From: Leptotrichia hongkongensis
Lineage (GTDB): Bacteria > Fusobacteriota > Fusobacteriia > Fusobacteriales > Leptotrichiaceae
Direction of reading: 5' to 3'
Assembly: GCF_007990635.1 (NCBI RefSeq)
Contig: NZ_AP019846.1
Location: 1,426,001-1,490,000 of the forward strand
Length of the DNA: 64,000 nucleotides
The notes beneath the pieces were generated by a model that was not told where the DNA came from, searched no databases, and saw only the letters and a program-made list of their open reading frames with translations. How positions within the stretch are numbered: position 1 is the stretch's first letter; the number at the start of each line of letters is the position of its first letter. Shown here piece by piece: positions 7,411 to 27,113 of this stretch. Both the position numbers and the translations under genes were made by a program.

Positions 7411-7731
7411 TTAATCAAGAACTTCCTGTAATTTATCGCTTATAATATGTGTTATTGGTCTTTTAGAAATTTCTGTTAAGTATTCTTGTTTTATTAATTG
7501 TTCTATATTTTTTTTCAATGTAGGCATGCTTACTTTAATTATTTCGACTAATTGCCGATCTTCTAAAGGAAAATCAGAAAAGATATAATTCTGAATATAA
7601 ACAAACAATATATTCTTCTTTAAATTATCTAAATCTAATTTATCTAAATAATCTTTTGAATATTTTAATTTTTCTATTCTATCCATCAGCATTTTAATTA
7701 TACTTTCTTGTCCTTTTTTTATCAATTCCAT
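7411..7731 (-). CDS. Hypothetical protein, possible winged-helix C-terminal fragment
   Basis: I do not recognise the family. The 106 residues are charged and helical; residues 55-95 (PLEDRQLVEIIKVSMPTLKK and on to EYLTEISKRP) look like a winged helix-turn-helix. The ATG lacks a good ribosome binding site. The same frame stays open upstream for about 35 more codons, which argues that the visible ORF is the C-terminal part of a longer, damaged gene. Confidence 0.5.
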   Translation of the reverse strand: MELIKKGQESIIKMLMDRIEKLKYSKDYLDKLDLDNLKKNILFVYIQNYIFSDFPLEDRQLVEIIKVSMPTLKKNIEQLIKQEYLTEISKRPITHIISDKLQEVLD

Positions 7732-7997: not shown

Positions 7998-9647
7998 CTA
8001 TAATTCAATATCACTCTCATAATACAAAACTTGATTCATATTTCCTTGCAAAAATTCAACCTTTTCCCTAATTTCCTCAGATACAAACGGCATTTTTATA
8101 TCTGACAGAGTTTCTTTTAAAGTTTGTGTTAACTCCACTATTTGCACTTTATATTTATCGAGTTTTAAATCATTTGCCATTGATTTTATACAATCTTCAA
8201 GAGTTCCAATTTCATCAACTAAATTGATATTTTTGGCTTCACTTCCAAGCCATACTCTTCCCTGTGCGATTTTTTCAAGTTCCTCATCATTCATTCCTCT
8301 GGCTACCATTACATGTTCCTTAAACTCGCCATAAACTTCGTTCATATTATGAATTAATTTCTCTTTTGAATCTTCTCCCAACTTTTCAAACGGATTCAGC
8401 ATATCAAAGCCAGCACCTTTTCCAAATCCTTCCAAATTAACGTCTAACTTTTTCATTGTTCCTGCAACTTCAGGATACATCATAACAACACCGATTGAGC
8501 CTGTCAAAGTAAAGTTATTCGCAAATAATTTTTTTCCAGTTGTAGCAATGTAATAACCACCGCTTGCACAGACATCTCCCATTGAAACATATATTGGCAC
8601 AGTCAATTTTTTTAATTTCTTATATATTTTTTCAGAAACTAAAGCACTCCCGCCAGGCGAATTTATTCTTAACACCAACCCTTTCAAATTCTTTATTTCT
8701 TTTAATTCCTCGAGTTTTTCACAAACATTATCATAGGTAATATTTTTGTTGGGATTTTTCACATCAATAACACCCTCAAGATTTATCACAGCAATCGTAT
8801 CTTTTGATTTTTCTTTTTTTTCTTTCAACATTCCTATGTAATCTCCAATTGAAGCAGTGTCTTCCTCATAATTTATCCCAATCTCATCATAATCAGTAAC
8901 ACCGTCAATCAATTTATACTCCAAAGCCTTTTTCGCTCCAGCAAAAATCAAATTTCCACTCAATATTTCATTTTCAATGTCAACCCCTCTTTTACTTTTT
9001 ACCAGTTCCACAAAATCTTTAAAAACTTTATCTTTTATATTTTTAATTGATTCTTTTTTCTCTTCTGACATTCTATTATGGCTATATTTTTCTCCAGCGA
9101 CCTTGTAATTACCAATATGAAGCACATTCATCCTTATCCCAAACTTTTCCAGAAACGACTTCAAATAAAATTCCTTATGCAAATATCCCCTAAAAATAAT
9201 AGTTGACTGCCTTGTGTCAAACATAAAAATCTTATCCGCAAGCAAAGCCTCTCTATATCTACTTTCCTCAAAAAGCGTACCTATTGCCACTACTTCCTTG
9301 TTTTTCCTAATCTTATCAAAAATTTTAGAAATCTCTTCCAGCTGTGAAAGTGTCAAATTCAACTTATCCACATCAATAATCACTTTTTTTATATTCTTAT
9401 CTTCCGCAAGATTATTTAATCCTTTTAATATTTGATAATACGATAATTTCTCTTTCCCCTTTAATGCAGACATAGCCACATCTTCCTTCAATTTTTTAAT
9501 ATCAAACACAACAGTTTTTACCTTTTTTAAAGGCAATTTCTTCTTATTTTTCACTCTAAGAATTTTCTTCACAAAAATTAGATTTAAAATCACACACAAA
9601 ATAAGCATTATTACTATTTCTAACAGCATTTTCAAAATAAACATCAT
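7998..9647 (-). CDS. sppA: Signal peptide peptidase SppA, long (67K) form
   Basis: Membrane-bound serine protease that digests released signal peptides. There are two tandem ClpP-like domains, as in E. coli SppA. The N-terminal domain supplies the general base in HIGNYKVAGEKYS (Lys182), and the C-terminal domain supplies the nucleophile in CASGGYY (Ser362), followed by LTGSIGVV. One N-terminal hydrophobic anchor is present (FILKMLLEIVIMLILCVILN). I start at the ATG behind AAAGGGAG; an upstream ATG at 9701 would overlap the preceding gene and has no ribosome binding site. The final length of 549 residues fits the long-form family. Confidence 0.93.
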   Translation of the reverse strand: MMFILKMLLEIVIMLILCVILNLIFVKKILRVKNKKKLPLKKVKTVVFDIKKLKEDVAMSALKGKEKLSYYQILKGLNNLAEDKNIKKVIIDVDKLNLTLSQLEEISKIFDKIRKNKEVVAIGTLFEESRYREALLADKIFMFDTRQSTIIFRGYLHKEFYLKSFLEKFGIRMNVLHIGNYKVAGEKYSHNRMSEEKKESIKNIKDKVFKDFVELVKSKRGVDIENEILSGNLIFAGAKKALEYKLIDGVTDYDEIGINYEEDTASIGDYIGMLKEKKEKSKDTIAVINLEGVIDVKNPNKNITYDNVCEKLEELKEIKNLKGLVLRINSPGGSALVSEKIYKKLKKLTVPIYVSMGDVCASGGYYIATTGKKLFANNFTLTGSIGVVMMYPEVAGTMKKLDVNLEGFGKGAGFDMLNPFEKLGEDSKEKLIHNMNEVYGEFKEHVMVARGMNDEELEKIAQGRVWLGSEAKNINLVDEIGTLEDCIKSMANDLKLDKYKVQIVELTQTLKETLSDIKMPFVSEEIREKVEFLQGNMNQVLYYESDIEL

Positions 9648-9678: not shown

Positions 9679-11234
9679 TTATATATTTTTAATAAATTCA
9701 CAAATCTTATTACTTGTTACAATAGGATATTTCAAATTTTGATTAAATATAGAATTTGAATATTCTTTTCGTACTATTACGCCACAAACTATATAATCTT
9801 CTATTTCAAATATATATTTTTGTTTATCATTTTCAGACATTTCTTCTAATATTTTATTTTTATTATTACTTACCCACTCTACTTTTTTGTGCAATTTATC
9901 TTGAAATTTCTTTTTTTCATCTACTTCCTCACTATTAATTCTTGATTTAGTATTAAATTTTAAATTCAAATTTTTACATTCTATAATTAAAATTTTTCTA
10001 TTCTTTATACATAATATATCTATCTGACCAGGAGAACCTACAAGATCTATATTGGGTTTTATCCATAAATTAGAAATTTCATTTTCTATCATATTTAAAA
10101 TTTTAATTTCAAAATTATCATTTAGACTATTATAACTTTTGTCTAACTTAGCACTTTTTATTATATCATCGGGTAGATATCTATTCTTAATATCTTCTAA
10201 CAACAAATTTAAAGAACTTAAAAATAAAAAATTATTAATCAAATATTGATTTTCTAATTTTATTATACTCTTTCTTAAAACTCTATTTTTATCATTTAAA
10301 TTTTTATCATAAATATTATCTTTTTGAGGATTATATAAAAAATATTCAAATATCTTTTGACTTTCCTTTTCTTCACATTCTCCCCAATAACTCAATAATT
10401 CTAATAGGTTATCTTCAAACCTAAAAATATACTTGTATCCTCCCCCTAAATTTTTTTCTAATTCCTTTATTATTTTTGTATCGTTTCTATTTTAAATCCA
10501 AAAAATTACTAAATTTATCATATAAATTTTGAATAATTTGATTATCTCTAATATTATTTTGATTATGTTCTTCTAATTTATTATTTTTAATTTCATCAAT
10601 AAAAAAGGAGCATAATCTTTTTCTTTTCCACTATTAGATATTAATAATCTACCTCTTTCAAAAATTATGAACTTATCTTTATATTTTCCATCTATCAACT
10701 CAATGGTAATATTTCTAAATTTTTCAAGTTTTTTTAATGAGTCTAATATTTCGTAATATTTGTTATCATCTAAGATATTACTATTGTATTCTGATACATC
10801 ATTATAATTTTCAAAATTAAACCCAATCCTAGTTCAATTGACAATCTATCTATTGATAATACATGATTTACTGTATATTCTATTTCTATTTTTTCATAAT
10901 CATTTTTTTTATAAAATTGGGAAACTTTTGATAATGCTTGTCGCCTATTTTCAATTAAACATTCTAATAAAAATATCAATATTTCAAATTTATTAAAAGA
11001 ATCCAGTTTTTTTAATATTTCATGAAATAATTCTCCTGTTATTCTATATATGGCTTCTTTTTTTTCTTTTTTCACTAAAACTTTTCCGTTATATCCTAAT
11101 TTTTCTATTATTTCAGAAATATCAACATCGTTTAACCCTTCAGCTTGACTATATCTTTCCATGTATTTTATGTAAATATGCTCATCTCTCTGATAAAAAT
11201 TCTTTATAACTTTTGATTTTTCACCATCTGTCAT
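9679..11234 (-). pseudogene. Frame-broken gene for a PD-(D/E)XK nuclease-like protein after uvrB
   Basis: Three one-base lesions split one gene into pieces. The N-terminal part starts at the ATG at 11234, behind GGAG and 14 bases after the uvrB stop, and reads well to GLGLILK. The frame then shifts at a G3 run (plus-strand C run 10822-10824), at a T6 run (plus-strand A run 10601-10606) and at an A4 run (plus-strand T run 10490-10493). Repairing all three gives exactly 519 codons. The C-terminal third (9679-10491) has DLVGSPGQIDILCIKNR and then ILIIECKNLNL, the D...ExK pattern of restriction-endonuclease-fold nucleases. The N-terminal region has no recognised domain. It may be damaged by sequencing error rather than dead. 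DNA processing is inferred from the fold and from linkage to uvrB. Confidence 0.7.
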
Positions 11235-11247
11235 ATCTGATACTCTC

Positions 11248-13221
11248 CTATAACTCAATTAACAACTTCTTCAATTCATTCATTTTATCCCTCAATTTAA
11301 TAGCTTCCTCAAAATTAAGCTCCTCAGCCAGTTTTTTAATCTGTTTATCAAGTTTTTTAATTTCCTTTTCCACGTCTTTTTCGCTCTTATACTGTTTAAT
11401 TGCTTTGTTTGCTTCATTTTCTTTTTCAATTTCATAGTCTACGATTGACTCTGCAATTTCTCTTACGATTGATTTTGGATTAATGTTGTTTTCCAAGTTG
11501 TATTTTTCCTGAACTTCACGCCGTCTGTTTACTTCGTCAATGGCTTCCTGCATAGAGCCTGTTATTCTGTCGGCATACAAGATAACGTGTCCTTCTACGT
11601 TTCTTGCGGCACGTCCCATTGTCTGAATTAAAGATCTTCTGGAACGCAAATATCCTTCCTTGTCTGCTTCCAAAATTGCCACTAATGAAACTTCTGGAAT
11701 ATCCAGCCCTTCCCGCAGCAAATTTATTCCAACCAGAACATCAAATTCACCTTTTCTCAAGCCTCTTATTATCTCTGTTCTTTCTAGCGTATCAATGTCA
11801 GAGTGCATATATTTTACTTTTATTCCATATTCCAAATAGTAATCTGTCAGTTCTTCTGCCATTTTTTTTGTTAAAGTTGTTACTAAAATACGTTCTTTTT
11901 TTGCAGTTCTTGTCTTTATTTCATCCATTAAGTCATCAATTTGATTTTTTGTTTCACGAATATCAATACTTGGCTCTACAATTCCTGTTGGACGGACAAG
12001 CTGCTCTACAACTTCACCATTTGAATGTTCCAGCTCGTAATCGCTTGGAGTGGCTGAAATATACACAGCTTGCGGAACTTTTTCAAAAAATTCCTCAAAT
12101 TTCAACGGACGGTTGTCGTAAGCACTTGGAAGCCTAAATCCATTGTCAATTAAAGCCTTCTTTCTTGCCCTATCTCCCTTATACATTCCATTTATCTGCG
12201 GAACTGAAATGTGCGACTCATCCAGAAATACGACTAAATCCTCTGGAAAATAGTCAATCAACGTATCAGGCGCTTCTCCTTCACCCTTTCCAGTCAAATA
12301 TCTGGAATAGTTTTCCACACCTTTACAATAACCAATTTCTTCAATCATTTCTAAGTCATATTTCGTTCTTTGCTCAATTCTCTGTGCTTCCAGTAGTTTT
12401 CCTTCCTTTTGGAAAAAATGCACTCTTTCTTCCATTTCCTTTTTTATTGCCTCAAACATCACTTTTGTATCTTCATTTGTCAAATAGTGAGTTGCAGGCA
12501 TTATTGTGATTCTTTTTATATTTCTAATTTTCTGTCCAGTAAGCGTATTAATTTCTGAAATACTTTCCAAATCATCTCCAAAAAATTCAAAACGGTACCC
12601 TGTATCCTGATAAGATGGATGTAAATCAAGAATATCACCTTTCACACGGAATTTTCCACGCTCAAATGCAATATCATTTCTCTCATATCTAAGTGAAATC
12701 AGCCTTTTTATAAGCTCATTTCTCTCAAATCCAGTTTCCACATCAATCGGAATCGATCTCTTTTTATATGCCTCTGGCGACCCCAATCCATAAATTGCCG
12801 AAACTGAAGCCACAATAATAACATCTCTTCTGTTCAAAAGTGCCGCTGTTGCCGCATGCCGCAATTTATCAATCTCATCATTAATTGAAGAGTCCTTTTC
12901 AATATACGTATCAGTTTGCATAATATACGCTTCAGGCTGATAATAATCATAATAAGACACAAAATATTCAACAGCATTTTCAGGAAAAAACTGCTTATAT
13001 TCATTGTAAAGCTGTGCTGCAAGTGTTTTATTCGGCGCCATTATCAAAGCTGGACGATTTATTTTCTCAATAACATTCGCAACTGTAAATGTCTTTCCCG
13101 ATCCCGTAACCCCAAGCAAAATCTGATCTGTAATCCCATCTTCCAAGTTTTCCACAATCTTTTTAATAGCCTGAGGCTGATCTCCAGTAGGCTTAAATTT
13201 TGAATGTATCTTAAAATCCAT
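11248..13221 (-). CDS. uvrB: UvrABC system protein B (excinuclease subunit)
   Basis: Damage-verifying helicase of nucleotide excision repair; it loads with UvrA and recruits UvrC. Features in order: Walker A GVTGSGKT, the beta-hairpin region YYDYYQPEAYIMQTDTYIEK, Walker B/DEAD-type VVFLDESH, helicase motif VI (QTMGRAARN) and a C-terminal UVR motif (FEEAIKLRDKMNELKKLL) that contacts UvrC. I start at MDFKIHSKF, which follows AAAGGAGGAAAAATAGAG; the upstream TTG overlaps that ribosome binding site. The resulting 657 residues are normal for the family. uvrA and uvrC are not in the window. Confidence 0.98.
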   Translation of the reverse strand: MDFKIHSKFKPTGDQPQAIKKIVENLEDGITDQILLGVTGSGKTFTVANVIEKINRPALIMAPNKTLAAQLYNEYKQFFPENAVEYFVSYYDYYQPEAYIMQTDTYIEKDSSINDEIDKLRHAATAALLNRRDVIIVASVSAIYGLGSPEAYKKRSIPIDVETGFERNELIKRLISLRYERNDIAFERGKFRVKGDILDLHPSYQDTGYRFEFFGDDLESISEINTLTGQKIRNIKRITIMPATHYLTNEDTKVMFEAIKKEMEERVHFFQKEGKLLEAQRIEQRTKYDLEMIEEIGYCKGVENYSRYLTGKGEGEAPDTLIDYFPEDLVVFLDESHISVPQINGMYKGDRARKKALIDNGFRLPSAYDNRPLKFEEFFEKVPQAVYISATPSDYELEHSNGEVVEQLVRPTGIVEPSIDIRETKNQIDDLMDEIKTRTAKKERILVTTLTKKMAEELTDYYLEYGIKVKYMHSDIDTLERTEIIRGLRKGEFDVLVGINLLREGLDIPEVSLVAILEADKEGYLRSRRSLIQTMGRAARNVEGHVILYADRITGSMQEAIDEVNRRREVQEKYNLENNINPKSIVREIAESIVDYEIEKENEANKAIKQYKSEKDVEKEIKKLDKQIKKLAEELNFEEAIKLRDKMNELKKLLIEL

Positions 13222-25436: not shown

Positions 25437-27113
25437 ATGAAAATTAGGAAAAATTTGTTAAAAATTTTAACATTGCTTATTTTATCAGGAAACATTATAA
25501 ATGCGGGCTATATTAAAGAAAAAAATAAAATTTATTTCATTGACACAATGGAAGATTCTGAGAAAAAAGAAATTGTAAAAAATATTGATTTTAGGACTTT
25601 TAAAATTTTTGAAGAGAATGATAATTTTGCGAAAGACAAGGATAATGTTTACTATAAGAATAAAAAGCTGAAAAATGTAGATGTGAATTCTTTTCAAGTG
25701 GAAAAATTTTTAATAGCAAAGGATAAGAGTAGTGTGTTTTTTGTGACAAGAGATGAGGTTATAAAATTTAAAGGGTTTAGTCCAGAGAAAAGTGAGATTT
25801 TTTTACAACCTTTTATGCCAAGTATATTACGAAATAAAGATGGAATTTTTACTTTTGATAAATATGAAAACGGTGAAATCACATTAAAATCAATAAAAAC
25901 TAAAGAAATGGATATAAACAGTTTAGAAATATTAAGAGATACATCGATAATTTTGTATTTAAAAGATAAAAATAATGTGTATTATGTTAATTATGTGGAA
26001 AGTAAAGATAATAATGATTATACCAAAGATGAAGAAAATTATGACGACAGAAAAAATATCGAAATTGATATAAAACAAATAATAGGAGCGGATAGTAATA
26101 GTTTTGAAATTATTGAAATTTATGGGAAAGATAAGAATAATATATACGCTTTTGGAAAAAAATTGCTAGGCATTAACCCTAAATCTTTCCAAATAATAAA
26201 TAAAAATGGACTTCTTTTTAAAGATGATAAAGGTGTCTATTATCTTGGAAGAGAAGAAGCAAAAAAAATTCAGAATGCCGATATAAATAGCTTTGAAGAA
26301 GTATCGAAAGAATATTATCGAGATAAAAATAATGTTTATTATTATGATAATTATGATGGCGATGTAAAAAAAGTTAAAGGGGCAGATGCAAAAACTTTTG
26401 AAGCAATAGAAGGCTATGCATTAGGAAGAGATAAAAATGCTGTTTACGACAGAGGGAAGATGATAAAGGGCTTAGACCCTGTGACATTTGAAGATTTAAA
26501 CGGAAATTTTTACAAAGATAAGAATGGAGTTTACTACGAAGGAATGCTAATGAAAGGAATTGATTCAAAATCTTTTGAGCCATTTGTAAATTATACACAT
26601 GTAAAAGATAAAAATGGAATATATTCTTTTTATCAAAAAGAAAATGAAGTTGTTGTTGAAAAAGTTGAAATTTCTCCAGAAATTGATTTAAAAACTTTAC
26701 AACCTATCGAAAATTATTCTGAATATTCAAAAGATAAAAATAACGTTTATTATCATTTTCAAAAAATAGAAGGTGCTGATATAAAAACTTTTGAACCTAA
26801 AGGGTATTCTATTGGAAAAGATAAAATGGGAGTATATTATGAAACTCGTAAAGTAAATGGAGTGGATGTAAATAGCTTTGAAGTTTTGAAAAATGATTTT
26901 TTTAAGGATAAAAATAATGTTTATTATAAAAATAAAAAGTTGGAAATATTCAAACCTAAAAACTTTGAAGTAATAGACTATTCTTTAGTAAAGCAAAATG
27001 AAGATTTGTACTATTTTACTGAAGATGAAAATAATAACACAAAATTTGTTCCATTAGAAAGTAAAAATGTCGATATTGATACTTTTCAAATTCTTGATGA
27101 AGATTATGCATAA
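25437..27113 (+). CDS. Secreted DKNYY-repeat protein D
   Basis: Fourth paralogue, 558 residues from the ATG behind AAAGGAGTCGAT; an upstream ATG at 25365 would put extra residues before the signal peptide LLKILTLLILSGNIINA. About thirteen DKNYY repeats, ending FQILDEDYA at a TAA that stands where KDKN would be expected. Sequence beyond the stop (to 27259) still resembles a repeat, so the natural C-terminus was probably about 45 residues longer. Exported, function unknown. Confidence 0.85.
   Translation: MKIRKNLLKILTLLILSGNIINAGYIKEKNKIYFIDTMEDSEKKEIVKNIDFRTFKIFEENDNFAKDKDNVYYKNKKLKNVDVNSFQVEKFLIAKDKSSVFFVTRDEVIKFKGFSPEKSEIFLQPFMPSILRNKDGIFTFDKYENGEITLKSIKTKEMDINSLEILRDTSIILYLKDKNNVYYVNYVESKDNNDYTKDEENYDDRKNIEIDIKQIIGADSNSFEIIEIYGKDKNNIYAFGKKLLGINPKSFQIINKNGLLFKDDKGVYYLGREEAKKIQNADINSFEEVSKEYYRDKNNVYYYDNYDGDVKKVKGADAKTFEAIEGYALGRDKNAVYDRGKMIKGLDPVTFEDLNGNFYKDKNGVYYEGMLMKGIDSKSFEPFVNYTHVKDKNGIYSFYQKENEVVVEKVEISPEIDLKTLQPIENYSEYSKDKNNVYYHFQKIEGADIKTFEPKGYSIGKDKMGVYYETRKVNGVDVNSFEVLKNDFFKDKNNVYYKNKKLEIFKPKNFEVIDYSLVKQNEDLYYFTEDENNNTKFVPLESKNVDIDTFQILDEDYA

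What the first reader, a model, noticed from the sequence alone, without database searches (positions are those of the whole stretch)
9679..11234. PD-(D/E)XK nuclease-like gene directly after uvrB
The repaired gene encodes a 518-residue protein with a C-terminal GQIDILCIKNR...IECKN nuclease core and an unrecognised N-terminal half, starting 14 bases after uvrB. Coupling to a repair gene hints at a DNA-processing or defence role. I know of no standard uvrB partner of this kind.
Basis: partly seen in the sequence, partly recalled or inferred. Interest (0 to 1): 0.55.

Follow-up and report, generated by a model that had tools for sequence, protein, structure and literature searches.

The report
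Broken NERD-nuclease gene after uvrB
Next to the DNA-repair gene uvrB this bacterium carries a one-off, now broken gene for a DNA-cutting-type protein, in a spot where related species carry other accessory genes, so its link to DNA repair looks like an accident of position.

Summary
A coding stretch of about 518 codons starts 13 bases after uvrB's stop and carries GQID...IECK near its C-terminus. It is broken by three frame changes. The C-terminal 267 residues match Pfam NERD (PF08378, 24.9 bits, cut-off 22.1). The nearest defence protein by motif is the C-terminal end of anti-phage protein Upx, a weak match. The N-terminal part has no recognised relative.

Coupling to uvrB is not supported. 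Outside its own genome, no homologue of the C-terminal part was found in 12 genus genomes or 97 other phylum genomes, in a set of 389 including its own, or in plasmid, phage and viral collections. In the 10 genomes (own included) where sppA follows uvrB, the gap holds this gene (1), an AbiD/Abi_2 abortive-infection gene (2, one broken), the AbiD leader plus a small membrane ORF (1), another small membrane ORF (5, three broken), or 19 bases (1). Neighbouring gaps vary too, so the slot is not unique. Best reading: an acquired, decaying accessory gene, probably a defence nuclease, sitting behind uvrB by position only.

The parts
11248..13221 (-). uvrB, intact
   Evidence: ORF of 657 aa from its ATG; 13 of 13 genus genomes have it at 85-100% identity
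9679..11234 (-). Broken gene, about 518 codons in four pieces over three frame changes
   Evidence: Frames and codon statistics; start and stop
10773..11234 (-). N-terminal open piece, 154 codons (the last 20 or so lie past the first frame change); predicted helical, no family
9682..10482 (-). C-terminal open piece, 267 codons, with NERD (PD-(D/E)XK) nuclease domain at residues 142-215
   Evidence: Pfam PF08378 E 3.1e-5, 24.9 bits over cut-off 22.1
9973..10029 (-). Nuclease motif GQID...IECK
   Evidence: First bases at 10029 and 9984
7998..9647 (-). sppA-type S49 signal peptide peptidase, far edge of the slot, intact
   Evidence: Peptidase_S49 178.7 bits; 549 aa ORF
7411..7731 (-). C-terminal remnant (106 aa) of a Fic-family gene that is 402-403 aa in 5 relatives; a second decayed accessory gene nearby

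Best explanation
An accessory gene, acquired by this lineage and inserted between uvrB and sppA, that encoded a roughly 518-residue protein with a helical N-terminal part and a C-terminal NERD-type PD-(D/E)XK nuclease domain. Shown: the coding stretch, the domain match, the absence elsewhere, the broken frame, the exchange of contents in this gap among relatives. Inferred: that the intact ancestor was a single-gene defence nuclease (the N-terminal part senses or binds, the NERD domain cuts DNA), that it was transcribed by read-through from uvrB, and that the present copy is no longer made at full length. The uvrB neighbourhood is positional, not functional.
For: NERD above cut-off. Weak but motif-exact similarity to the C-terminal end of Upx: PADLOC E 0.003, NCBIfam E 0.0018 with 15.5 bits against a cut-off of 1900, PDB chain 9wuf_A 'Restriction endonuclease' E 0.018 with G-PG-ID-L...IECK aligned. 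GC 20.4% against 35.8% for uvrB and 30.9% for sppA. Only its own genome rings in 98 phylum genomes. The same gap holds AbiD/Abi_2 in G006 (Pfam 92.6 bits, PADLOC AbiD E 4.8e-31) and a broken copy in G001, and is 19 bases in G010. No terminator-like site between uvrB and the gene. Breakage is common in local accessory genes: the G001 AbiD copy, the Fic remnant, and three of five small membrane ORFs, while uvrB and sppA are intact.
Against: No phage-defence assay, no intact homologue and no defence model over its cut-off. NERD also occurs in non-defence proteins such as SmdA of Staphylococcus aureus, a cell-morphology protein (search listing). Five of the 10 uvrB-sppA gaps hold small membrane ORFs with no family, so the slot is not shown to be a defence slot. 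Other gaps in the region vary as much. Without an intact relative, sequencing error cannot be excluded for the frame changes.
Confidence: 0.6

Rival explanations
1. A functional, translationally coupled partner of UvrB in excision repair, a lineage-specific structure-selective nuclease.
For: 13-base spacing, same strand, Shine-Dalgarno-like GGAG before the ATG, no terminator between; weak sub-threshold Hjc (Holliday-junction resolvase) similarity, E 0.07.
Against: Absent from the 12 other genus genomes with near-identical uvrB; frame broken three times; AbiD or unrelated ORFs take the same place in relatives.
Confidence: 0.05
2. An intact, expressed NERD nuclease whose frame changes are sequencing or assembly errors.
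For: Coding signal persists in all frames with no further stops. Two of the three frame changes fall in A/T-rich stretches with runs of 6.
Against: Three errors in 1.5 kb of a 99.7% complete genome whose neighbouring core genes are open; other local accessory genes in several independently assembled genomes are broken too.
Confidence: 0.2
3. A NERD-domain protein with a housekeeping or plasmid-maintenance role rather than defence.
For: NERD proteins with other roles exist: SmdA (search listing), and the domain was first described on a plasmid (reference list entry seen).
Against: No plasmid match at E up to 10 and a one-genome distribution, which suits accessory cargo better than housekeeping.
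Confidence: 0.25

Closest known systems
NERD domain, Pfam PF08378 (PD-(D/E)XK superfamily)
   Same: Profile match over the cut-off at residues 142-215 of the C-terminal piece; G-x-I-D and E-C-K present
   Different: Partial match (profile positions 24-95 of 111); N-terminal part unlike anything found; gene broken
Anti-phage protein Upx, C-terminal nuclease end
   Same: G-PG-(D/Q)-IDIL...IECK alignment near the C-terminus
   Different: Upx is about 1240-1270 aa; this is about 518; score 15.5 bits against a cut-off of 1900
NERD-bearing defence systems Mokosh type I and Nhi-like
   Same: Share the NERD domain, according to one review table (PMC10952713, passage seen)
   Different: No helicase domain seen; no PADLOC model of either rang
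AbiD / Abi_2 abortive-infection proteins
   Same: Occupy the same uvrB-sppA gap in G006 and G001
   Different: Unrelated protein (Abi_2 family, PF07751)

Membership tests
NERD (PF08378) | Profile score over Pfam's gathering cut-off | tested here: met
   24.9 bits against 22.1; same result in the genome-wide scan, 26.7 bits
NERD (PF08378) | PD-(D/E)XK Asp and Glu-x-Lys | tested here: met
   GQID at residue 152 and IECK at residue 167
NERD (PF08378) | Nuclease fold | tested here: inconclusive
   Single-sequence AlphaFold2 model, pLDDT 34.9; too poor for a fold search
Upx | Full-length match to the Upx model | tested here: not met
   Only model positions 1125-1197 of 1240 matched; 15.5 bits against 1900
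Known phage-defence system | Confident PADLOC match | tested here: not met
   Only Upx at E 0.003, 12.9 bits for the C-terminal piece, none for the N-terminal piece
UvrB-linked repair gene | Conserved beside uvrB in relatives | tested here: not met
   Absent from 12 of 12 other genus genomes; gap contents differ
Phage-defence function | Protects against phage | not testable with these tools
   Needs an intact homologue and an assay

The most novel reading that the evidence does not exclude
The uvrB-sppA gap of Leptotrichia is a small, integrase-free exchange site for single-gene defence cargo, and the ancestor of this gene was an unrecorded one-gene anti-phage system: a new helical sensor fused to an Upx-like NERD nuclease.
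Probability: 0.12. Interest if true: 0.45.

Novelty: new member of a known kind. Interest (0 to 1): 0.2.

Why it matters
If the slot reading were right, it would show how core-gene gaps in a small, AT-rich genome trade single defence genes without an integrase, and it would give a place to look for new ones in Leptotrichia strains. As it stands, the gene is a broken orphan of a known domain family, and its lesson is mainly a caution: a 13-base spacing to uvrB did not mean a shared function.

Tried and rejected
Homologue searches for the C-terminal piece found nothing outside the own genome: 60 relatives (238-aa piece), 98 phylum genomes, 389 relatives including other phyla, where only up to 6 first-look candidates per genome were scored, 3 and 77 genomes of two unnamed other phyla, genome contigs twice (30 and 258 pattern matches, none confirmed), viral contigs, plasmids and phages. 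BLAST's low-complexity filter may have masked part of this AT-rich protein, and other phyla were sampled thinly, so relatives may exist elsewhere.

The N-terminal piece rang at E 0.0036-0.0058 in 5 other genomes of 98. I treated these as chance from composition and did not follow them up. It also gave nothing confirmed in viral contigs (39 pattern matches, none confirmed). PDB chain 8sf7_5I matched the helical stretch before NERD at E 0.00022; I took it as composition, since it vanished when the query was cut to the nuclease part, and did not test it further.

Other NERD matches in the genus (8 of 13 genomes at E up to 0.001, 7 of 13 over the cut-off) were examined in three loci. They are larger proteins of other architecture; I judged this by reading, without an alignment. 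The several 124-137-codon matches look like the YraN family, from recall, not scanned.

I looked for a known RNA in the leader of the AbiD gene: none at gathering threshold in five loci, and only E 0.47 and 0.87 matches in the leader itself. Structure models of both pieces were too poor to search with.

Full report
What is there. On the minus strand, between uvrB (11248-13221) and an S49 peptidase gene of the sppA type (7998-9647), lies a 1600-base stretch of 20% GC that codes for one protein in four pieces. The ATG is at 11234, 13 bases after uvrB's stop, preceded by a GGAG. Three frame changes, near 10830, 10620-10600 and 10490, break it. The outer stop-free runs of 162 and 270 codons are longer than any in 2000 Markov-1 simulations (maximum 160), so the coding signal is real. 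Between about 10650 and 10480 no single frame is clean.

What it encodes. The 267-residue C-terminal piece matches Pfam NERD at 24.9 bits against a cut-off of 22.1, residues 142-215, profile positions 24-95 of 111. The PD-(D/E)XK Asp and Glu-x-Lys are there (GQID, IECK). The nearest named defence protein is Upx: PADLOC E 0.003, NCBIfam E 0.0018 but 15.5 bits against a cut-off of 1900, and PDB chain 9wuf_A, a 1272-residue 'Restriction endonuclease' that is probably the same family by length and position, at E 0.018. These are weak. The N-terminal piece matches no family with confidence; a single-sequence model is all helical at pLDDT 56.8. The C-terminal model failed (pLDDT 34.9). The two short middle pieces were not searched.

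Distribution. The C-terminal piece was found only in its own genome among 98 phylum genomes and among 389 relatives, in which at most 6 candidates per genome were scored; also in none of 3 and 77 genomes of two other phyla, nor in plasmids, phages, viral contigs or genome contigs. The genus is inferred to be Leptotrichia: genome G006 has a 34135-base contig with an Abi match at 26156-26902, equal in length to the Leptotrichia hofstadii plasmid NZ_AP019824.1, which matches at 26168-26902.

The gap in relatives. All 13 genus genomes have uvrB at 85-100% identity. In 10, the own genome included, sppA follows uvrB. In the other 3 (G005, G007, G012) no sppA match lies in the fetched region, and an ArsC-like gene follows uvrB. 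Contents of the 10 gaps: this gene (own); an AbiD/Abi_2 gene in G006 (Pfam 92.6 bits, PADLOC E 4.8e-31) and a 99% identical stretch with the gene broken in G001; in G003 the first 180 bases of that AbiD stretch followed by an unrelated 142-codon membrane-like ORF; in G009, G011, G008, G002 and G004 a related small membrane-like ORF, open over 100 codons in G009 and G011 only; and 19 bases in G010. G011's gap contains a run of N. The small ORFs match no Pfam family (two of them scanned). The own gap shares no DNA with the others beyond a 29-base AT-rich match.

A control that weakens the slot idea. In the same genomes the other gaps also vary: sppA-arsC 108-1824 bases, znr-era 20-906, era-uvrB 161-1372, arsC-rplS 204-1428 (9 of 10 measured), against 19-1600 for uvrB-sppA; only rplS-lepB (9 of 10 measured) stays at 68-282. 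One gap nearby holds a Fic-family gene, 402-403 codons in 5 of the 9 relatives and a 106-codon remnant in the window. So these genomes take up and lose accessory genes in many core-gene gaps, and uvrB-sppA is one of them.

Mechanism. The most likely history is uptake of a low-GC accessory gene into this gap, transcription by read-through from uvrB (no terminator-like site between them; inferred), and decay by frame changes. The most likely role of the intact ancestor is a defence nuclease: NERD is listed among domains of phage-defence systems (Mokosh type I, Nhi-like; PMC10952713, passage seen) and a NERD-subtype nuclease occurs in a system with a YprA-like helicase (PMC12458937, passage seen). 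NERD proteins with other roles exist, such as SmdA (search listing only). Papers on Leptotrichia defence slots were not found in the listings; the listings shown were 15 of 403 and 4 of 4, so this is not a claim of absence.

Verdict. Interest is low: a broken orphan of a known domain family.

Noticed in passing
L033:5162-6309 (G006), L035 (G001): An AbiD/Abi_2 gene sits in the uvrB-sppA gap behind a leader with a promoter-like TTGACA/TATAAT and a stem-loop followed by T's just before the gene, as for a small RNA; no Rfam family matched at threshold.
   Followed up: partly
L034 (G003), uvrB-sppA gap: The first 180 bases match the AbiD leader and gene start at 98%, then the sequence switches to an unrelated small membrane-like ORF, as if the cargo had been swapped behind a shared start.
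   Followed up: partly
L031, L032, L036, L037, L038, uvrB-sppA gap: A family of small membrane-like ORFs with no Pfam match, broken in three of five genomes; similar-looking membrane ORFs lie beside a NERD-helicase-like gene in L048 and L051.
   Followed up: no
L031 and L037, uvrB-sppA gap: A GC-richer palindromic stretch (GCAGGATT...AATCCTGC and following) recurs in the gap and looks like a dispersed repeat.
   Followed up: no
window 7411-7731: C-terminal remnant of a Fic-family gene that is full length in five relatives.
   Followed up: partly
L037:10553-11893 (G002): A 447-aa gene with no Pfam family over cut-off sits between era and uvrB in one genome only of the 10.
   Followed up: partly
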